A stretch of 32,319 bases of DNA, from the NCBI GenBank assembly GCA_013815465.1, contig JACDGE010000023.1, positions 1 to 32,319 on the forward strand, in the 5' to 3' direction. Under the pieces are notes generated by a model. The model had not been told where the DNA came from and ran no database searches. It worked only from the letters and a program-made list of their open reading frames with translations. The position numbers and the translations under genes were made by a program. Positions 4,706-28,691 of the stretch are shown here, one piece after another. Numbering within the stretch: position 1 is the first letter of the stretch; the number at the start of each line of letters is the position of its first letter. Source of the stretch: Alphaproteobacteria bacterium (lineage in GTDB: Bacteria > Pseudomonadota > Alphaproteobacteria > UBA9655).

Positions 4706-4895
4706 ATGCAAATTCCTTGTGCGTCAGGCGTGAGATCAAATTGATATAAAATCATTAGGAATGAATAATGGCAAGAAAAATGTGTAGAAAAATATGGAGA
4801 GATTCTCGCTCTGGATTACGGCATTTGTAATGACGATGTGGTGAGATAACCATAAAACCTAAAATTTTTTACAATTTTTAATAAAATTAAATATT

Positions 4896-4924
4896 TTGAC
4901 TTTTGTTTTTTTGTAAATTATATA
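4896..4924 (+). promoter_or_regulatory. Promoter of the first small secreted-protein gene
   Basis: TTGACT (4896-4901), a 17-base spacer and TATATA (4919-4924), 36 bases before the ATG. The whole upstream block (from ~4855) is closely similar to that at ~6001-6108, where TTGACT-17-TATAAC occupies the same place. The conservation between two copies supports real function. Confidence 0.7.
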
Positions 4925-4960
4925 TTCGTTTTTGTTGTTAAATCTATAAAGGTAATTTTT

Positions 4961-5326
4961 ATGAATAAAATTTTATTTAATTTTTTGATTGTTGGTGTCT
5001 TATTGGCGGCTATTCAAGGCGCTTCTGCAGGAAAAAGTGGAAAACTACCTCTGGAAGAAAGAAATGTGAACACTACACCGCGGTCCCCTGTAAAGATTCA
5101 GAAAACTCTGCAGCCTCCACCTGTGAGGAAGAAGCAAGCCCCAACTGTAAGTTGTGCAGCTAAGGTGTGCTTAGAAAACAGGAGCTATCTTCAGGCTATT
5201 GTTCATTCTGTTATCAGTGGCAAGAGAGAAAGGAACGGGGATCCCATTGACTGTAGAATTAGACTGAAAACCCCTTTTCTTCTAGAAGATGGTCCTCTCT
5301 TTGTAGATGACCAGGTCGAACAATAA
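4961..5326 (+). CDS. Small secreted protein, paralogue 1 of 3
   Basis: Function unknown. This 121-residue protein starts with a clear signal peptide: MNKILFN, a hydrophobic core FLIVGVLLAAIQ and a cleavage site after GASA (residue ~23). The mature part is polar and Lys/Pro-rich, with the stretch EERNVNTTPRSPVKIQK that is shared with paralogue 2 (EERDVKTTPRTPTKIPK). It has three cysteines further on. The AAAGG ribosome binding site and following bases (AAAGGTAATTTTTATG) are shared by all three paralogues. The next paralogue starts 45 bases after this stop without a promoter of its own, so the two are probably cotranscribed. An exported host-interaction or periplasmic protein is a guess from the signal peptide, small size and rapid divergence. 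Confidence 0.75.
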   Translation: MNKILFNFLIVGVLLAAIQGASAGKSGKLPLEERNVNTTPRSPVKIQKTLQPPPVRKKQAPTVSCAAKVCLENRSYLQAIVHSVISGKRERNGDPIDCRIRLKTPFLLEDGPLFVDDQVEQ

Positions 5327-5371
5327 GTTAAACTGTTTATTTTTTTTATTAATTTTATAAAGGTAATTTCT

Positions 5372-5815
5372 ATGAATAAAATTTTATTTAATCTTTTGAT
5401 TGCAGGTGTGTCATTAACTGCCATTCACGGCGTCTCTGCGACAAAGCTTGTTACCACAGGCCCAGAAGAAAGAGATGTGAAGACCACACCTCGCACACCG
5501 ACAAAGATTCCGAAACCAAGTAATTTAAGGAACAGAGCTCCATTGGGAACTCTTTACCCTAGCCACGCAAGAGGTGTGGAATCTCCAGAAGGAGACAAAA
5601 TAGTGGGCAAAAAAGTATTATGTAGTCCTAGTCGTATTGCAAACTCCATCAAACTATCCATTGGAAATCAGGGAATTTTTATGATAGATGGAAAAGGCAA
5701 CGAAATCCCTTGTTATAGAAAAAATACTGCTTTAAAAGATTTATTGGTATCAGCTATTCCCCTTGAAAGAGCTGGAGTTGAAATTCCTGAGATTATTATA
5801 TCATTTTATGACTAG
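5372..5815 (+). CDS. Small secreted protein, paralogue 2 of 3
   Basis: Function unknown; 147 residues. The signal peptide (MNKILFNLLIAGVSLTAIHG, cleavage after VSA near residue 23) is nearly identical to that of paralogue 1, and the first mature segment EERDVKTTPRTPTKIPK is clearly homologous. After about residue 50 similarity to the other two copies is lost. The C-terminal half (from ~residue 80) looks like a small folded domain with alternating hydrophobic residues (SIKLSIGNQGIFMIDGKGNE, then PEIIISFYD). The start has the shared AAAGGTAATTTC leader. A strong hairpin terminator follows (5843-5885). It probably forms a two-gene operon with paralogue 1. Confidence 0.75.
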   Translation: MNKILFNLLIAGVSLTAIHGVSATKLVTTGPEERDVKTTPRTPTKIPKPSNLRNRAPLGTLYPSHARGVESPEGDKIVGKKVLCSPSRIANSIKLSIGNQGIFMIDGKGNEIPCYRKNTALKDLLVSAIPLERAGVEIPEIIISFYD

Positions 5816-5842
5816 TTTTAAATAAAAATTTATTTTCTATTA

Positions 5843-5885
5843 AAAAAGCCATTTCCCCTATATTCAAGAAGGGAAGTGGCTTTTT
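5843..5885 (+). terminator. Intrinsic terminator after paralogue 2
   Basis: AAAAAGCCATTTCCC (5843-5857) pairs over 15 bases, one G.T wobble, with GGGAAGTGGCTTTTT (5871-5885), giving a stem followed by its own T-run. The A-run on the left means it could also work in reverse, but no gene approaches from that side. Confidence 0.9.
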
Positions 5886-6045
5886 CATTTTCCAGGTTAT
5901 TCGGTCTTTGGATGAATGTCTTATGCCTTAACTCGAGGAGGGAAGTCACACGGCTAGCTTTTGAAGAGAATAACAAAGCTGAATAAATAATTTTTTTGAA
6001 TTTAAAACCTAAAATTTTTCATAATTTTTAATAAAATAAAATGTT

Positions 6046-6074
6046 TTGACTTGATGTTTTTTATTTATTATAAC
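6046..6074 (+). promoter_or_regulatory. Promoter of the third small secreted-protein gene
   Basis: TTGACT (6046-6051), 17 bases, TATAAC (6069-6074), 34 bases before the ATG at 6109. It is homologous to the promoter block at 4896-4924, including the upstream AAACCTAAAATTTTT segment, which indicates that the promoter was duplicated with the gene. Confidence 0.7.
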
Positions 6075-6108
6075 TCTGTTGTTGTTAATATTTATAAAGG
6101 TAGTTTTT

Positions 6109-6396
6109 ATGCATAAAATTTTATTTAATTTTTTAATCGTTGGTGTCTCGTTAGCTGGTATTCAAGGCGCTTCTGCGATGGAAGATGATAACCAGTCTTC
6201 TCGCACACCTAGAAAGCTTCAGGATACTCCGGAGATTCAGAATATTCAGAGAATCCCTTGTGCCCCCATGAAAGCTTCTGCCCGTCATTTTGGCCGCACA
6301 AGAGTAGAGAAATCTCCGAATGAATATGAGATGATCGGTGGTACCTTATGGAAAAAGGTACAATCCGAAACTCCTTCCATGGTAGCCTATAAATAA
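6109..6396 (+). CDS. Small secreted protein, paralogue 3 of 3
   Basis: Function unknown; 95 residues from the ATG at 6109. An in-frame ATG at 6079 lies between the -10 box and the ribosome binding site and is not used as start. The signal peptide MHKILFNFLIVGVSLAGIQG with cleavage after GASA is close to that of the other two copies, and the leader AAAGGTAGTTTTTATG is shared. The mature part is short, with a RTPRKLQDTPE stretch that echoes the TPR(S/T)P.KI motif of paralogues 1 and 2. It then diverges. It has its own promoter and its own terminator (6408-6450). It may be an active shortened member or a decaying copy. Confidence 0.7.
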   Translation: MHKILFNFLIVGVSLAGIQGASAMEDDNQSSRTPRKLQDTPEIQNIQRIPCAPMKASARHFGRTRVEKSPNEYEMIGGTLWKKVQSETPSMVAYK

Positions 6397-6407
6397 AAAT
6401 AATTGAT

Positions 6408-6450
6408 AAAAAGCCATTTTCCGTTCACTCCCTACGGGAAGTGGCTTTTT
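6408..6450 (+). terminator. Intrinsic terminator after paralogue 3
   Basis: AAAAAGCCATTTTCCG (6408-6423) pairs with CGGGAAGTGGCTTTTT (6435-6450) over 16 bases with two G.T wobbles, followed by a T-rich tract. The stem is nearly identical to the terminator at 5843-5885, so the terminator was duplicated with the gene. Confidence 0.9.
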
Positions 6451-6538
6451 CTTTAATCTCATTTCTCATTCTCCATGCTTGCTTTTTCCACCTATCTCTA
6501 TAAAAATCATTGAACCATTATAAACGAGATAGGAATCC

Positions 6539-9402: not shown

Positions 9403-10332
9403 ATGATGAGAAGAAAAGCAAATTTTTTGCTCCTTTCCTTGATGGTTGCCATCGCTTTCATCGCAATTTCTTACAACGCAAAAGCCGTGGATGTATGTGC
9501 ATCAGTAACTTTGACTTCAGATAATGCAAAGCAATCCTGCCAATCGACGTGTGGGACTGCGGAAAACTGGAGTGGTCAGTGGACGACACAAGCTTCGGGG
9601 ACGACATGTTCGAATAATTCGACGAATAGTGTGTGTGGTTGTTATCTCTATCCTACGTGCTTTTGCGATAAAAATGGCGAACAAATTGCGAACTGTCTCA
9701 TGCCATCAAGCTGTCCAGGCGGGTTTTCGAGCTGCGATTGCCCAAAGGGAACATCTTGTGATAATTTTACATGTCAACCAAATGGTGGTGGCACTCCTTG
9801 TCAACAGTGTAATTCAAATTGTTTGATGTCCTGTCAGGGTGTTCCTGTACAAGGTCGAGCGGATTGTCAGACCTCTTGCTTCGCCCAGTGCGAGAGTAAT
9901 GTCTGTAAAAATACGAATGCAAAGGGAAAACTTCCACAAACGAAGATCCCAAATAAAAAAATTGTCGGTCCTCTAACGCCTCCATCTGCTACAGTTAAAG
10001 AGGCATCAAAAGAAAACTCTCAACCTGAAAAAGAGGCCGTGCCTTCAACGCCTAAGCCTTCTCCAACAGTTGAAGAGGCACCAAAAGAAAACTCTCAACC
10101 CGAAAAAGAGGACGCCCCTTCAACGCCCAAGTCTTCTCCAACAGTTAAAGAGGCACCAAAAGAAAACTCTCAACCCGAAAAAGAGGACGCTCCTTCAACG
10201 CCCAAGTCTTCTCCAACAGTTAAAGAGGCACCAAAAGAAAACTCTCAACCTGAAAAAGAGGCCGTGCCTTCAACCTCCACATCGTCTCCTGAGAGTAAGG
10301 AAGTTCCGAGCCACGAACGCCAGCCTAAGTAA
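9403..10332 (+). CDS. Exported Cys-rich protein with a 25-residue Pro/Glu/Ser repeat tail
   Basis: Function unknown. This 309-residue protein begins with a signal peptide (MMRRKANFLLLSLMVAIAFI, cleavage near the AKA at residues 26-28). Residues ~30-172 contain 22 cysteines spaced like a disulfide-knotted extracellular domain (for example CGCYLYPTCFC and CQQCNSNCLMSC). From ~residue 197 there are four tandem 25-residue repeats of the type TVKEAPKENSQPEKEDAPST plus PKSSP, encoded by 75-bp DNA repeats (9991-10290). Copies 2 and 3 differ at only two bases, indicating recent expansion. The tail is charged and probably unstructured, like a stalk or surface linker. The last 88 bases overlap the 3' end of tssG on the other strand. 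AAGGAA precedes the start. A surface or secreted protein is likely. Confidence 0.8.
   Translation: MMRRKANFLLLSLMVAIAFIAISYNAKAVDVCASVTLTSDNAKQSCQSTCGTAENWSGQWTTQASGTTCSNNSTNSVCGCYLYPTCFCDKNGEQIANCLMPSSCPGGFSSCDCPKGTSCDNFTCQPNGGGTPCQQCNSNCLMSCQGVPVQGRADCQTSCFAQCESNVCKNTNAKGKLPQTKIPNKKIVGPLTPPSATVKEASKENSQPEKEAVPSTPKPSPTVEEAPKENSQPEKEDAPSTPKSSPTVKEAPKENSQPEKEDAPSTPKSSPTVKEAPKENSQPEKEAVPSTSTSSPESKEVPSHERQPK
9991..10290 (+). repeat. 75-bp coding tandem repeat, four copies
   Basis: Units at 9991-10065, 10066-10140, 10141-10215 and 10216-10290 each begin ACAGTTAAAGAGGCA (or close). The unit is an exact multiple of three, so copy-number change keeps the reading frame. The middle two copies are almost identical; the outer two have diverged. 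Confidence 0.95.
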
Positions 10333-11264
10333 GCCTTATCTTTAAGTGTGGTTGAAGGGGGGTTTTTCGCTGCATAATGCACACTGAAATCCATTGATGG
10401 CCCCACGTAAAGTTTTGTGAGATCCTTGAGTCGCTCAAATCCCTTTCCACAAGGGATGAAGGTATCCAGTTTTTCCACATCCAGGGGGCCGAGATGTAAA
10501 CGAAAATGGCCCATTTGATCCCAAACCCGTGTTCCCAAGACAGCTCCTTGTCCTAATCGTTGCCATTGACCTGTTCGACCAATACGTGTTTGCTCCGTTC
10601 TTGCAAGGGGGCGCCACCCCCCCACATAACGTTCGACAGATACGGGAATCTTAAAATAACTTCTTAGGATCGTTTCAAGGCCCTTTGCGGATCTAGGATG
10701 TGACCAATAAAGAGCAGCATAATCCAACAGACTTCGGTCAGGAACTGCCAAGCGGTTTTCAAGTGCATCTTGCCCGATTCCTATAAATGATTTGAGCCCA
10801 ATCGCTATTTCTGTTTTCTCTGGTACGAGAGTATTAAGGCTGATCATATATTGTTTACGGATACGATGGAGAATGGATGTTAGGCGATGATTGAAAATAT
10901 CTAGAAAATCCTTAAGACTTGTGTCTCCATTACGTATGCGTTGAATTAGCATTTCTGTATAAGGGAAGGGCAGGGGCCCTTGAATGCCGGCAATTCCCAT
11001 AAAATTTATATTGAGGATGGGAGGGAATTCTGAAGTCAGTTGGACATTATCTAAGGAGTAAATATCGCTTGCCATGGATTCTAAATAAATCCGTGATTTA
11101 ACCGTTACCACTTCATCGAGAGGGTTAACCGTTTCTCCAAAGGGGGCAGCTTTAGGGTAAAGATATTCTAAGAGCTTAATGGCTTGATGAAATTCAAACC
11201 TATAGGGCTCCTGAAAAAGGATATCCTTTATAGGAGGGGCTGATTGCCGATTTGTGCGGGCCAT
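10245..11264 (-). CDS. tssG: Type VI secretion baseplate protein TssG
   Basis: TssG (VasB/ImpH family) forms the baseplate wedge with TssF, TssE and TssK. The 339-residue product has the family hallmarks: EPYRFEFHQAIKLLEYLYP near the N-terminus, the FPPILNINFMGIAGIQGPLPFPYTEML segment, FLDIFNHRL, RSLLDYAALYW...AKGLETILRSYF, and the C-terminal TKLYVGPSMDF and LGWRSWLGT. ATG at 11264 is preferred over the in-frame TTG at 11273, because most family members begin M-A-x-x-N-R. It overlaps tssF by 37 bases, so translation is coupled. The 3' end overlaps the Cys-rich gene on the other strand by 88 bases; the last ~12 residues after GDD are antisense to the 75-bp repeat and look unlike the family. 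Confidence 0.92.
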   Translation of the reverse strand: MARTNRQSAPPIKDILFQEPYRFEFHQAIKLLEYLYPKAAPFGETVNPLDEVVTVKSRIYLESMASDIYSLDNVQLTSEFPPILNINFMGIAGIQGPLPFPYTEMLIQRIRNGDTSLKDFLDIFNHRLTSILHRIRKQYMISLNTLVPEKTEIAIGLKSFIGIGQDALENRLAVPDRSLLDYAALYWSHPRSAKGLETILRSYFKIPVSVERYVGGWRPLARTEQTRIGRTGQWQRLGQGAVLGTRVWDQMGHFRLHLGPLDVEKLDTFIPCGKGFERLKDLTKLYVGPSMDFSVHYAAKNPPSTTLKDKAYLGWRSWLGTSLLSGDDVEVEGTASFSG

Positions 11265-13054
11265 CGTTTCCAAATTCCATCCGTTTGAGAGCTAATAAGC
11301 GTTAATTCTGTAAAAGAGTTGAGCGAGACATATAGACTAAAAAACTCATTAAGAACTGAAGCAAGCATAAACCCTCCATTTCCCGAATTGGGGGGCTCGT
11401 TTATGGTTAAAGTAATACTTAATCCTTGTATAAATCCTCTCCACGAATCCTTTCCCCACCGACGCATAACGGATTCATAGGTAATGTTTTCGAGTGCATT
11501 AATTTCAGGATGGGATTTACCCTTATTAAAACCAGAGTAAAGCTGTAAAAGCTCTTTTAATGCCAAGGTGGCTTTCTGGTTTCCGCTTAAACTCAAATGA
11601 TTGAGCGAAAGTTGAGAGATTAAGCGCCATTGAGATTCCCCATCTAAGGATGGGGGTAAGGGAGCCGTTGGTCGAGAGAGACACGTAATGCTTGTGGGAG
11701 GGATCATATCTTCCGCCTGGAGCGCGCCTCCCGCAGGGATATAAAGAGGCAAGTCTCGGTTCGTACAAAGAGTATGGGCGTAGACGGTTTGATTGCTCGG
11801 ATTTTTCGGGGAAAAATTATAGTCGACAAAAGAAAGAAAAACCTCGGTGCCCGAAACTTCAGGGATTTCAGAAGGAGACCGTGTTGAATGCCAAAAAAGT
11901 CCATTATCCTTTGCTTCTATGGCGTAATCATAGGAAAAATAAGGAGCAAAAACTTCTGTTTCCTTTCCCCCATTTATAGCCGCAACAACTTTTAGAATAC
12001 TGTGGATCTCCGTTGAATCTTCGTTCCGTTGATCCCCCACGATTTGGTAAGAAACGGATTGGTAATTCAAATCAATAGGTTCACTAATTTTAGGAAAAAG
12101 ATTGATGATCGGTGTGCAGCCCAAAACAAAATGGGTATGATTGATATGGAGCTTATCGACGCGACTGCTGTCGGCCAGGGGGATGTAAATATCGACATAA
12201 CGATCAGCTTTGCTGGTCGAAAAATTGTGAATGTCTAAAAACTTAAATTTATCGGGAAAGATAAAAAATTCATGCAATAATCGATAAGCATCCAGGACAT
12301 TATGGGGGTAGGGGATTAAGGATTCGTCCTCCCTGAATCCGACAGGCGTGATGGATCCTTCAGGTAATAGAGTAGGGGTGGGGGCCGTATCCGCTTGGAC
12401 AAAGACGGGTGTTGGCGTGTCGGGAAGATAGGCCAAGATGCTATCGTAGAGACATTGAGAGGTAAGAGAATCTCCAGATAGAAAGAAGCGTAAGCGAGAG
12501 GGCTCAAGTTCACTCATTATCCCGTCATACCGTTGAATACGCAAGTGAAGGATCCACTGGGTTTTGACCTCAGCCGGCAAAAGGGGGCTTTGGTCGATAT
12601 TGAGGATCTTTGCGGTTGAGACTTCAAAGGGCCATAACTCTACGGGGTAAGCTGTTTGAAAACGGCAAATTTTCTTTTCTTGGGCTTCTGCAAAAAGAGC
12701 TGTCCCACGGGGGACTTCGTATCCAGCAGTTGGTTTTCCGAGATGAGGGGAGAGACGGAATGAAGCAATGGCAGCAGAAGGAAAAGGAGCAACAAATTGC
12801 GGATACAGAACACCTAAAAGCGTGTTCGTAAACTGAATATAGCGATTGTCCAATTCTTTTTGTAGCCGCCCTGTCAGGAAAGCAAAGGATTCTAAAAGCC
12901 GTTGGACGTGTGGATCAGATGATCCCGCAGGAGACATGTTCAAGTTTTGTGCAATTTTAGGATATTGGGCAGAAAAGCGTGCGCCTGCGCGATGCAAGTA
13001 CATCATTTCCTGCTGATAGTAATCCAGCATTTGCTCAAAGTTTTCTCGGCTCAC
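11228..13054 (-). CDS. tssF: Type VI secretion baseplate protein TssF
   Basis: TssF (VasA/ImpG family) is the main baseplate wedge component. The 608-residue product has normal length and the expected N-terminus (FEQMLDYYQQEMMYLHRAGARFSAQYPKIAQNLN, then SSDPHVQRLLESFAFLTGRLQKELDN), the YPQFVAPFPSAAIASFRL segment and a C-terminal FFSLYVSLNSFTELTL...W..WPAQIGNQPLL. The start is GTG with GGGGA eight bases before it. It begins 75 bases after the pccA stop in the same direction and overlaps tssG. No other type VI genes are in the window, so the rest of the apparatus must lie elsewhere if it is functional. Confidence 0.94.
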   Translation of the reverse strand: MSRENFEQMLDYYQQEMMYLHRAGARFSAQYPKIAQNLNMSPAGSSDPHVQRLLESFAFLTGRLQKELDNRYIQFTNTLLGVLYPQFVAPFPSAAIASFRLSPHLGKPTAGYEVPRGTALFAEAQEKKICRFQTAYPVELWPFEVSTAKILNIDQSPLLPAEVKTQWILHLRIQRYDGIMSELEPSRLRFFLSGDSLTSQCLYDSILAYLPDTPTPVFVQADTAPTPTLLPEGSITPVGFREDESLIPYPHNVLDAYRLLHEFFIFPDKFKFLDIHNFSTSKADRYVDIYIPLADSSRVDKLHINHTHFVLGCTPIINLFPKISEPIDLNYQSVSYQIVGDQRNEDSTEIHSILKVVAAINGGKETEVFAPYFSYDYAIEAKDNGLFWHSTRSPSEIPEVSGTEVFLSFVDYNFSPKNPSNQTVYAHTLCTNRDLPLYIPAGGALQAEDMIPPTSITCLSRPTAPLPPSLDGESQWRLISQLSLNHLSLSGNQKATLALKELLQLYSGFNKGKSHPEINALENITYESVMRRWGKDSWRGFIQGLSITLTINEPPNSGNGGFMLASVLNEFFSLYVSLNSFTELTLISSQTDGIWKRWPAQIGNQPLL

Positions 13055-26034: not shown

Positions 26035-27048
26035 TCAAAGATTTTTTGAGGTGACCGTGTCTGCCTTTCTCTCACCTTTAATGCGCTCCGGGGATTGCTG
26101 GCGCAAATTCAATAGAGTTGAAATCCTTTCTTGATATATTTCTTGAAGTTTTTCGACGGAATCAAGGTGCTGATTCCTTTTTTTCAACCAATTTCTCTGT
26201 TCCTGGAGAAGTTGTGTTTTAGATTTATCATCTAAGAAGGAGAGTAATATTTTATAAGAAGCATTCAAATTATTATCCAGGTTCTTTAATTTTATATTAT
26301 CACCCAATAAGCCTGCTAAAAGTTCTTCCTTATTTAAACGATTTCCGACAGCATACAATTTACCATCTTTGCTAAGGCGCCTCAAGATGACAGCGCTTGA
26401 CATGTCGGCAGTGCCTCCACCAAAACTAAATACTTTGCAAAGGATTTCTTGATAGCCGCTATGAGTAAAATCCCCCCTTGCAATTTCTTCTAAGATTATT
26501 GTGTCGGGATCCATTTCATCGCCCCTTATTGACTCAGGCTTTGGACATTCAGCAATCTTCAGAAAAGTATCCGTGCTCTCAAGAACGACATACTCTTTAT
26601 CTTTGATAAGATCAGCTACGGTTTTGTTTTTATATTTTTTCTCAAGTCCATCGAAATACTCATTACTGCTAACGCACGTTTCTAAAAGCATTTTAGCTGG
26701 AATAAGTTCTATGTTTTTTAAAGTTATATTTGAATCAATATAATTATTTTTCGCAATTTTTACGCCAGCTAATATTTCAAGGGTATCGCATTGCCTAATA
26801 AAGGCAAAGTTTGCATTGATACTCGCTTGGGAAACATAAGTTGGGTCGGGGCTTCCCTTCATGTGATATTCTTTACATGTTAAAATCGTCCCAATTTCGC
26901 TATGAAAAAATGTAAGATTTGATTCCTTGCCCATGGCATACACACCTCCCTGAATTAGGATCTTATTCTCCTGAGCGCAAAGAAAGTCTGCTGCGCATAA
27001 AGTAAAACAAAATAATAGAAACGTTCTATAAAAAATTTTATTTGTCAT
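26035..27048 (-). CDS. Exported protein with C-terminal LprI-like (lysozyme-inhibitor) domain
   Basis: This 337-residue protein starts with a signal peptide (TNKIFYRTFLLFCFTLCAAD, cleavage near FLCAQ). The middle (30-230) is unrecognised and contains several cysteines. The C-terminal ~60 residues, LNASYKILLSFLDDK...LLQEQRNWLKKRNQ, fit the LprI/DUF1311 pattern 'LN..Y..L...L.....L...Q..Wl..R'. LprI-domain proteins inhibit lysozyme or are periplasmic proteins of unknown role; in a bacterium living in a phagocytic host, lysozyme defence is plausible but inferred. It is divergent from the LRR gene across 212 bases that contain a 13-bp inverted repeat. The ribosome binding site is weak (GGATAAAAT). 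Confidence 0.7.
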   Translation of the reverse strand: MTNKIFYRTFLLFCFTLCAADFLCAQENKILIQGGVYAMGKESNLTFFHSEIGTILTCKEYHMKGSPDPTYVSQASINANFAFIRQCDTLEILAGVKIAKNNYIDSNITLKNIELIPAKMLLETCVSSNEYFDGLEKKYKNKTVADLIKDKEYVVLESTDTFLKIAECPKPESIRGDEMDPDTIILEEIARGDFTHSGYQEILCKVFSFGGGTADMSSAVILRRLSKDGKLYAVGNRLNKEELLAGLLGDNIKLKNLDNNLNASYKILLSFLDDKSKTQLLQEQRNWLKKRNQHLDSVEKLQEIYQERISTLLNLRQQSPERIKGERKADTVTSKNL

Positions 27049-27260: not shown

Positions 27261-28691
27261 ATGAAAAAATCTATGAGCGTTTTGTCTGCTTTATTTTTGT
27301 TTTTATTATCTCCTCTCCCCGTTATTGCCATGGATCCATCGCCTTTTGATGATGAACCTAAGCAAAGAAAAATTCCTTCATTATTGGATCTTTCGGCTAC
27401 AAAGGTAGCTGCCCAAATAAAAAAAGAATTTTACCAGGCGTCCTCTACAACCCTTCAAAGGATTCTTTTGAGCGGGCTTAGCCTTGAATTAATATGTAAA
27501 CCAATTGAGCCTACGACTATATTTAACCCAAGGAAAATATCAGTTTTTCTTAAGGAGAACGATAAGCTTTCTTTGAAAGTCGGAACGTATGAAGTGGAAG
27601 ATCTGGTTGTTGTTTCTGAAGAATCAGACAATGGATTACCTAGGTATACATTTTCTAAATTATTAAATGCTTTAAAAGATCCTAATAACAAAGCACTTTA
27701 TAAGCAGATTTTAGAAGAAGAGACGAAAGGAAACGTCAGTGTCGCAAATTACCTACGCAACCAAATTGCTCGAAATCTGACATTGTCTGACTGGGTGGAG
27801 TTAACCCAATACACACAAGGGCTTGGATATGGGACTTATGCAGTCAATGATGTAAATAAAATTATTTTTTCACAGGAATTTTCATTCCAAAATAGTATAT
27901 TCAGAGATGAAGATATTTACAGTATTTCTGAGATTGCGTCCTTTGGTGCATGTTTGACCAATATCAAGCTGAGTCGACTAAATCTAGATCGGCTTCTGCG
28001 AACGGAAAGTGCTGCGGGAGGTCGTCTGACTGCTCTCCTGCAAGGACCGTCTTTAAAATCCCTTGATCTGAGTGGCAACGATCTCCGTCAAGATTTTTTA
28101 AATGTTTTGCAAAAATTATCACAGCTCACAAATCTTAATGTGGAACACAACTTATTGAACAGTTTGGATTTGAGGAGCTTTCCTCAGCTTACAACCCTTA
28201 ATGTAAGTTGGAATTGTTGCCTTAAGGATTTTCTTCCATACTCATGCCACTATCCTGAGAATATAAAATGGTGCCTTACATCTCTTAATGTTGCTCATAA
28301 TGATTCCATAAACACCAAGCATTTTCAGCATTTCACAGCTCTAACAGATCTTGATATGAGTTACTGCGAGCTTCGGAAGGTCAATGATTTGTCTTCTCTC
28401 ACAAATCTTAGAATCCTTAACTTGAGAGAGAACGAACTTGGGGAAATAAAGAGGGCCCAGCACTTTAATTTGGAGGGGCATGAGCCTGGGGAAAATATGA
28501 GTATCTTGGCTACATTACCCAATCTGACAAGTCTAAATGTGGCCTGTAATGGTCTTAACCGTGAGGATATCATTGCTTTGGAACCCCTTCTGGAAAATCA
28601 GACGACAACTACTTATTTGGGAAAAGACAAGACTGGAGAACATATCATTATTGGTCCCCATAAAGAGCTATTCGATATAGATACACAATAA
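27261..28691 (+). CDS. Exported leucine-rich-repeat protein
   Basis: This 476-residue protein has a signal peptide (MKKSMSVLSALFLFLLSPLP, cleavage after VIA). Residues ~35-230 are not recognised. From ~235 to 445 there are about seven LRR units, for example LKSLDLSGNDL, LTNLNVEHNLL, LTTLNVSWNCCL, LTSLNVAHNDS, LTDLDMSYCEL, LRILNLRENEL and LTSLNVACNGL, with the LxxLxLxxN core. Units are irregular in spacing. Such secreted LRR proteins are common candidate host-interaction factors in amoeba-associated bacteria; binding partner unknown. It is divergent from the LprI-domain gene and may share regulation through the inverted repeat at 27135-27178. Confidence 0.85.
   Translation: MKKSMSVLSALFLFLLSPLPVIAMDPSPFDDEPKQRKIPSLLDLSATKVAAQIKKEFYQASSTTLQRILLSGLSLELICKPIEPTTIFNPRKISVFLKENDKLSLKVGTYEVEDLVVVSEESDNGLPRYTFSKLLNALKDPNNKALYKQILEEETKGNVSVANYLRNQIARNLTLSDWVELTQYTQGLGYGTYAVNDVNKIIFSQEFSFQNSIFRDEDIYSISEIASFGACLTNIKLSRLNLDRLLRTESAAGGRLTALLQGPSLKSLDLSGNDLRQDFLNVLQKLSQLTNLNVEHNLLNSLDLRSFPQLTTLNVSWNCCLKDFLPYSCHYPENIKWCLTSLNVAHNDSINTKHFQHFTALTDLDMSYCELRKVNDLSSLTNLRILNLRENELGEIKRAQHFNLEGHEPGENMSILATLPNLTSLNVACNGLNREDIIALEPLLENQTTTTYLGKDKTGEHIIIGPHKELFDIDTQ

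What the first reader, a model, noticed from the sequence alone, without database searches (positions are those of the whole stretch)
4855..6450. Three-copy family of small secreted proteins with conserved leaders and diversified mature parts
The signal peptides, the ribosome binding site and 5' leader are nearly identical in all three; the promoter block is shared by copies 1 and 3, the terminator by copies 2 and 3. The mature regions share only a short (T)TPR(S/T)P.KI stretch and then diverge strongly. This pattern (fixed export and expression cassette, variable cargo) fits a diversifying effector or surface-protein family.
Basis: partly seen in the sequence, partly recalled or inferred. Interest (0 to 1): 0.6.

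Follow-up and report, generated by a model that had tools for sequence, protein, structure and literature searches.

The report
Duplicated exported proteins with diverged cores
A bacterium that looks like a symbiont of single-celled hosts carries three neighbouring genes for small exported proteins that kept the same on-switch and export tag while the working part of each changed almost beyond recognition, a pattern known from some proteins that bacteria send into host cells, but what these three do is untested.

Summary
Three ORFs (121, 147, 95 aa) share a 23-aa Sec signal peptide ending in an A/V-S-A cleavage site, and an RBS/leader. Copies 1-2 form one transcription unit and copy 3 another, which explains why the promoter is shared by 1 and 3 and the terminator by 2 and 3. 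Neither flanking element was found elsewhere in the genome. Mature parts are barely alignable (1-2 share 17 residues; 2-3 weak traces), although signal peptides differ by only dS 0.5-0.65.

No further copies were found in this genome. But a congener carries one gene whose mature C-terminus (RPEEYKIIGNTIWKKV vs SPNEYEMIGGTLWKKV) matches copy 3 and whose upstream DNA matches the promoter block. So copy 3 probably keeps the ancestral core; cores 1 and 2 are derived. In a 20% sample of the genome two more pairs show shared signal-peptide leaders with unalignable mature parts.

Best reading: small, basic, exported, lineage-specific proteins whose cores were replaced or diverged very fast after duplication. 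The pattern resembles phytoplasma SVM-leader proteins, but these are not members of that family. An effector role is plausible and unproven; export beyond the periplasm was not tested. Real, of moderate interest.

The parts
4853..4960 (+). promoter block and 5' leader of unit A: AT-rich upstream element TTTAATAAAATTAAATATTTTGAC (4877-4900), -35-like TTGACT, 17-nt spacer, -10-like TATATA, RBS AAAGG
   Evidence: 81% identical to 6003-6086; 24-nt element conserved upstream of the congener homologue and matched with 2 or fewer mismatches nowhere else in about 0.6 Mb scanned. The hexamers are read from the sequence; they are not among the sites listed by the promoter scan
4961..5326 (+). copy 1, 121 aa; signal peptide 1-23 (MNKILFNFLIVGVLLAAIQGASA), mature 98 aa, pI 9.6, 3 Cys
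5054..5104 (+). proximal mature block EERNVNTTPRSPVKIQK shared with copy 2
   Evidence: 78% DNA identity to 5465-5515; dN 0.17, dS 0.60
5341..5371 (+). duplicated leader with RBS in front of copy 2 (no promoter block, no terminator before it)
   Evidence: upstream similarity to copy 1 limited to about the last 32 nt
5372..5815 (+). copy 2, 147 aa; signal peptide 1-23 (MNKILFNLLIAGVSLTAIHGVSA), mature 124 aa, pI 9.5, 2 Cys
5465..5515 (+). proximal mature block EERDVKTTPRTPTKIPK
5843..5889 (+). intrinsic terminator of unit A (copies 1-2)
   Evidence: hairpin -20.8 kcal/mol, z -5.8; shared with 6408-6454; stem sequence found only in this locus in the genome
6003..6108 (+). promoter block and leader of unit B
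6109..6396 (+). copy 3, 95 aa; signal peptide 1-23 (MHKILFNFLIVGVSLAGIQGASA), mature 72 aa, pI 9.3, 1 Cys
6310..6363 (+). C-terminal core motif of copy 3 (KSPNEYEMIGGTLWKKVQ), conserved in the congener homologue L123:1414-1626
   Evidence: Smith-Waterman score 72 vs 23.5 +- 4.6 for shuffles, 0 of 5000; congener found
6408..6454 (+). intrinsic terminator of unit B
   Evidence: hairpin -22.6 kcal/mol, z -6.2

Best explanation
Two adjacent transcription units (copies 1-2; copy 3) arose by duplication of one ancestral gene for a small, basic, Sec-exported protein. The ancestral gene was probably copy-3-like, since a single-copy relative with the same promoter element and C-terminal motif survives in a congener. 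After duplication the promoter, RBS, signal peptide and terminator stayed similar, while the mature cores of copies 1 and 2 were replaced or diverged far faster than the surrounding DNA, giving three different exported products under one expression and export module. Shown: gene structure, shared modules, core divergence, congener relative, recurrence of the pattern in two other gene pairs. Inferred: export through Sec (signal peptide anatomy only), transcription-unit layout (spacing and terminators), the direction of change (copy 3 ancestral). Inferred and weak: that the products act on the host or on competing bacteria (effector-like), as against a periplasmic or surface role.
For: Anatomy. 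Shared leader well beyond chance. SP under purifying constraint (dN/dS about 0.1-0.23). At dS 0.53-0.65 neutral DNA should keep about 57-62% identity, and the flanks keep 79-81%, yet identity of copies 1 and 2 falls abruptly from about 0.7 to 0.1-0.3 at codon 49 and cores do not align in DNA or in any frame. Congener homologue: protein score 72 vs 23.5 +- 4.6 (fitted p about 9e-7 per pair) and, independently, upstream DNA score 55 vs 25 +- 4 (p about 4e-5). Two further leader-sharing pairs with unalignable mature parts (L087:7428-7748 with 11322-11606; L094:808-1548 with 1777-2466), E 3e-9 and 1.6e-6 against a shuffled best of 6.7e-5. A Paracaedibacter-like symbiont is reported with 158 signal-peptide proteins, 105 of them uncharacterised (PMC8163844).
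Against: No copy in 16 other genomes of the order at E 0.01 with the three-copy profile, none in GTDB r220 contigs or IMG/VR, no domain match and no confident single-sequence fold, so function is open. The congener hit alone (E 0.0064 in one of 59 genomes searched) would not survive multiple testing without the promoter match. No population or expression data; with three sequences positive selection cannot be told from core replacement or from gene conversion of the flanks.
Confidence: 0.72

Rival explanations
1. Effector-like reading in the strict sense: the mature proteins leave the bacterium (Sec export followed by an outer-membrane route, vesicles or lysis) and act on a protist host, and host pressure drives the core divergence.
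For: Small, basic (pI 9.3-9.6), signal-peptide-bearing, lineage-specific proteins with conserved export part and variable mature part; T6SS genes tssF and tssG in the window; relatives in the literature are described as protist endosymbionts with many uncharacterised exported proteins (PMC8163844).
Against: No known effector domain. A Sec signal peptide only takes the protein to the periplasm; no outer-membrane route was identified. Proteins with Sec signals are not typical T6SS cargo. Host not established.
Confidence: 0.35
2. Periplasmic or envelope proteins with loosely constrained, largely disordered mature parts; divergence is relaxed constraint after duplication, not diversifying selection.
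For: The proximal mature parts are Pro/Thr/basic-rich and all models are low-confidence. Constraint on SP and proximal block is visible while the rest drifts. Lineage-specificity can reflect mere failure to detect homologues (PMC7660931).
Against: Drift at the neutral rate cannot make cores unalignable at dS 0.6 while noncoding flanks stay at about 80%. Copy 3 keeps a motif shared with a distant congener, so at least its core is constrained.
Confidence: 0.3
3. Old duplicates whose flanks and leaders are kept alike by gene conversion (concerted evolution), so that dS of the leader underestimates their age and the cores had time to diverge by ordinary evolution.
For: Similarity is strongest at the RBS and first 12 codons and falls off along the signal peptide, as short conversion tracts would give; the units are adjacent.
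Against: The proximal block of copies 1-2 (codons 32-48) is again 78% identical after a divergent patch, which needs several tracts or selection. No direct test possible with one genome.
Confidence: 0.25
4. Secreted toxins or polymorphic-toxin cassettes (bacteriocin or T6SS type) with exchangeable cores.
For: Conserved N-terminus with variable C-terminus, and polymorphic toxin systems with alternative modules are described in a related symbiont (PMC8163844).
Against: No large parent toxin gene and no immunity gene: the gap between copies 1 and 2 is 45 nt and between 2 and 3 only 293 nt, with no ORF longer than 48 codons. No toxin domain; PADLOC was not run.
Confidence: 0.06
5. Chance ORFs behind a repeated AT-rich element; not genes.
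For: No homologues of cores 1 and 2 anywhere searched.
Against: Synonymous-biased changes in SP and proximal block, RBS, promoter element conserved in a congener, terminators, and a conserved motif in copy 3.
Confidence: 0.02

Closest known systems
Phytoplasma SVM (sequence-variable mosaic) signal-sequence proteins, Pfam PF12113 (SAP11, SAP54 and others)
   Same: Small Sec-dependent proteins that share a conserved N-terminal signal-peptide segment while mature parts differ widely; described as rapidly evolving; in an intracellular bacterium (PMC3984173, PMC8401217, PMC8026896).
   Different: No match to PF12113 in the Pfam scan. A different phylum. Phytoplasmas have one membrane, so Sec export reaches the host directly; a Gram-negative bacterium needs a second step. 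SVM genes are many, partly on mobile units; here three tandem copies with no mobile element seen.
Uncharacterised signal-peptide proteins of Paracaedibacter-like symbionts (for example Ca. Bodocaedibacter vickermanii)
   Same: A large pool of exported, lineage-specific proteins in a symbiont with Sec and T6SS (PMC8163844); the present genome also has tssF and tssG.
   Different: That paper does not describe leader-sharing families with unrelated cores.
Polymorphic toxin systems with alternative C-terminal modules
   Same: Conserved N-terminal part with exchangeable C-terminal part.
   Different: No large parent toxin, no immunity genes, no toxin domains.
Multigene peptide families with conserved signal peptide and hypervariable mature part in animals and plants (conotoxins, frog antimicrobial peptides, NCR peptides; from general knowledge)
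   Same: Selection acts differently on the export module and on the product.
   Different: Eukaryotic, much larger families, cysteine scaffolds usually conserved; no homology implied.

Membership tests
Sec/SPase I exported proteins | basic n-region, hydrophobic h-region, A-x-A-like cleavage site | tested here: met
   M(N/H)KILFN(F/L)LI(V/A)GV...G(A/V)SA with the proposed cleavage after residue 23 in all three; read from sequence and by a crude rule, no dedicated predictor available
Phytoplasma SVM signal family (PF12113) | sequence match to the SVM signal profile | tested here: not met
   no Pfam family at E up to 1 for any copy
Phytoplasma SVM signal family (PF12113) | shared signal segment with divergent mature parts | tested here: met
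   a matter of how it looks and works, not of membership
Polymorphic toxin system | immunity gene next to each toxin gene | tested here: not met
   no ORF over 48 codons between copies 2 and 3, 45-nt gap between 1 and 2
Polymorphic toxin system | known toxin or trafficking domain | tested here: not met
   no Pfam or NCBIfam match
Host-directed effector | delivery outside the bacterium | not testable with these tools
   only export across the inner membrane can be inferred
Copy-3 type family with congener member | C-terminal motif [RS]P[EN]EY[KE][IM]IG[NG]T[IL]WKKV behind a signal peptide and the TTTAATAAAAT..TTTTGAC promoter element | tested here: met
   copy 3 and L123:1414-1626; copy 2 has only a weak trace, copy 1 none significant

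The most novel reading that the evidence does not exclude
This genus makes new exported proteins by a repeatable route: a gene is duplicated with its promoter, RBS and signal peptide, and the core is then exchanged or rewritten, so that several independent leader families (three in a 20% sample of this genome, counting the window's) each carry unrelated cores. That would be a leader-retention mechanism for gene birth in a protist symbiont, independent of the phytoplasma SVM case.
Probability: 0.25. Interest if true: 0.6.

Novelty: new member of a known kind. Interest (0 to 1): 0.4.

Why it matters
Most exported proteins of protist symbionts have no recognisable relatives, and how such orphan proteins arise is an open question. 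This locus gives a case where the steps can be read: a single-copy relative in a congener, one copy with the ancestral core, and two copies with new cores behind the same promoter and export signal. It makes 'core replacement' against 'fast point divergence' directly testable by sequencing a few strains, and gives a leader-based way to find further candidates.

Tried and rejected
1. Frameshift as the cause of core divergence: cores compared in all frame pairs, nothing at p < 0.05. 2. Mature parts aligning end to end once done properly: soft-gap semi-global alignments give only p 0.035-0.86. 3. Homology of cores 1 and 2 with the CP...CxY small exported family next to tmk (L067:5145-5495 and relatives L069, L070): looked similar by eye, rejected by profile comparison (probability 0.4% and 0.1%). 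4. The weak leader hit on contig C108: an AT-rich signal peptide of an unrelated Cys-rich protein. 5. Terminator as a genome-wide common hairpin: the stem sequence is found only at this locus. 6. Conserved synteny: relatives mostly have tmk next to holB; here tmk lies on another contig, and the MFS gene lies elsewhere in congeners, so the locus is at a rearrangement junction and gives no positional orthologue. 7. Structure prediction from single sequences: mean pLDDT 46.6 and 50.5, not used for fold search. 8. PDB profile hits (FGF12, E 0.097): chance level. 9. Plasmid, phage and viral collections: nothing. 11. Organism name: not obtained; Paracaedibacter-like is inferred from gene content only.

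Full report
What was checked. The window is one contig (C106) of a 2.26-Mb, 151-contig draft genome. Each protein starts with M(N/H)KILFN(F/L)LI(V/A)GV and ends its signal peptide in A-S-A or V-S-A at residue 23. Copy 2 starts 45 nt after copy 1 stops, with no hairpin between; strong hairpins follow copies 2 and 3. So the most economical reading is two transcription units, [1-2] and [3], each with the same promoter and terminator. This explains why the promoter is shared by 1 and 3 and the terminator by 2 and 3. The upstream similarity of copy 2 to copy 1 covers only about the last 32 nt, so copy 2 looks like a duplication that began just before the RBS.

Is it more than chance? Leader similarities have E values of 1e-19 to 1e-37; in 20 sets of dinucleotide-shuffled leaders the best value was 6.7e-5. 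The terminator stem sequence was found only at this locus, and the DNA search found no other copies of the leader or promoter beyond a weak AT-rich signal-peptide hit. The signal peptides show dN 0.06-0.15 and dS 0.53-0.65, and the block shared by copies 1 and 2 shows dN 0.17 and dS 0.60; with so few codons these are rough, but the excess of third-position changes says that these stretches are translated and constrained.

The mature parts. After the signal peptide, eight residues differ freely, 17 residues are shared by copies 1 and 2, and then identity falls within a few codons to background. Distal cores do not align significantly at protein level by local alignment (p 0.10, 0.65, 0.48), nor in DNA apart from a short 2-3 trace (p 0.045), nor in other frames. 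Copies 2 and 3 do keep weak in-frame traces, so a common origin of their cores is likely but nearly erased. With dS about 0.6, DNA evolving neutrally would keep about 57-62% identity, and the noncoding flanks keep about 80%. The cores were therefore replaced, rewritten by many indels, or changed under strong selection, unless the flanks were kept alike by gene conversion. One genome cannot decide between these.

Relatives. No further copy was found in this genome with the three-copy profile at E up to 10, none in the other 16 genomes of the order held here, none among relatives with copy 2 as query at a meaningful level, none in GTDB r220 contigs or IMG/VR, and no known family in Pfam, NCBIfam or PHROGs. 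A search with the cores of copies 1 and 3 found one weak hit in a congener, G013 (E 0.0064). On inspection it is a 71-aa ORF with its own signal peptide (MRNLVYIISIFTIVGTFPLKA), whose C-terminus AAKRPEEYKIIGNTIWKKVNKK matches copy 3 VEKSPNEYEMIGGTLWKKVQSE (Smith-Waterman 72 against 23.5 +- 4.6 for shuffles, none of 5000 as good). Given the number of genomes searched, that protein match alone is not decisive. But the DNA upstream of this ORF matches the promoter block of copy 1 (score 55 against 25 +- 4), and the element TTTAATAAAATNANNTNTTTTGAC fits all three places without mismatch and no other place with two or fewer in about 0.6 Mb scanned (the element was defined from these three sites, so the test is of specificity only). 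Two independent similarities at the same gene make homology very likely. The HolB proteins of the two species are 63% identical, so this is a distant comparison: the regulatory element and the copy-3 core have been held over a long time while the signal peptide has not. Within our genome the reverse holds: signal peptides alike, cores 1 and 2 unlike. I infer that copy 3 keeps the ancestral core and that copies 1 and 2 are derived. In G013 the gene is single, between fabI and hemF by my reading of the neighbours.

Does the pattern recur? In 455 kb (20%) of the genome, 199 ORFs with a crude signal-peptide pattern were compared by leader DNA. Besides the window family and pairs that align throughout, two pairs have similar leaders but unalignable mature parts: L087:7428-7748 with 11322-11606 (E 3e-9, mature p 0.09; similarity extends into the 5' UTR) and the tandem pair L094:808-1548 with 1777-2466 (E 1.6e-6, mature p 0.2). 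The sample was chosen by contig number and by where earlier hits lay, not at random in a strict sense, and the signal-peptide rule is crude, so this supports but does not establish a general mechanism.

How it most likely works. Shown: a shared expression and export module, three different mature products, one of which has a conserved relative. Inferred: the products are co-regulated, made in similar conditions and exported through Sec; mature proteins are small (72-124 aa) and basic (pI 9.3-9.6). Their destination is unknown. T6SS genes are present (tssF and tssG in the window; a VgrG and a DUF4280 protein near the C101 pair), but Sec-exported proteins are not typical T6SS cargo. A published Paracaedibacter-like symbiont has 158 signal-peptide proteins of which 105 are uncharacterised (PMC8163844); if our organism is of that kind, these proteins belong to such a pool. 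Effector function is one plausible reading (about one in three); an envelope or periplasmic role is about as likely.

Known comparators. The closest parallel in design is the phytoplasma SVM signal family: a conserved signal segment before rapidly evolving mature parts, among them proven effectors (PMC3984173, PMC8401217, PMC8026896). Membership is excluded by the Pfam scan. In phytoplasmas Sec export reaches the host directly, here it does not. Hence: a new member of a known kind of arrangement, not a new kind of system.

Noticed in passing
L123:1414-1626 (G013:C1, L126:9886-10101): Single-copy congener relative of copy 3 with its own signal peptide, conserved C-terminal motif RPEEYKIIGNTIWKKV and conserved upstream element, between genes that look like fabI and hemF.
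   Followed up: yes
L087:7428-7748 and 11322-11606 (own genome, contig C101): Two small Cys-rich exported proteins with matching leaders (MKKY[HR]FYILI and 5' UTR) and unalignable mature parts; a VgrG and a DUF4280 (PAAR-like) gene lie just downstream.
   Followed up: partly
L094:808-1548 and 1777-2466 (own genome, contig C97): Tandem exported proteins with similar signal peptides and unalignable Lys/Ser-rich mature parts; the second has nuclear-localisation-like basic clusters (TKRKLSS...AKKSKLAR).
   Followed up: partly
L038 (G014), 651-aa ORF upstream of holB: Exported 651-aa protein in the tmk-holB interval with a bipartite nuclear-localisation-like stretch (KREAEEDKNSSKRIKL) near the mature N-terminus; this interval holds different lineage-specific exported proteins in several congeners.
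   Followed up: no
window 6178, 19827, 27330; L081, L085, L087, L088, L091: Many exported proteins here have Met right after the presumed cleavage site, often followed by Glu or Asp (A|MED, A|MEQ, A|MDP, A|MDT, A|MEI); crude count 5 of 42 at +1 against a 1.7% background of Met.
   Followed up: partly
window 9403-10332: Exported 309-aa protein with a weak match to the mannan-binding lectin family MVL (PF12151, E 5e-5, just below the curated cut-off) and a repeated KEAPKENSQPEKEDAPSTPKSSPTV tail.
   Followed up: no
window 10245-13054: T6SS baseplate genes tssG and tssF, minus strand.
   Followed up: partly
window 26035-27048 and 27261-28691: Two further exported proteins: one with an LprI-like C-terminus (PF07007), one with leucine-rich repeats (PF13855).
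   Followed up: no
L095:675-4346 and L096:728-4435 (contigs C36, C22): Two exported paralogues of about 1,230 aa, 55% identical over most of their length; function unknown.
   Followed up: no
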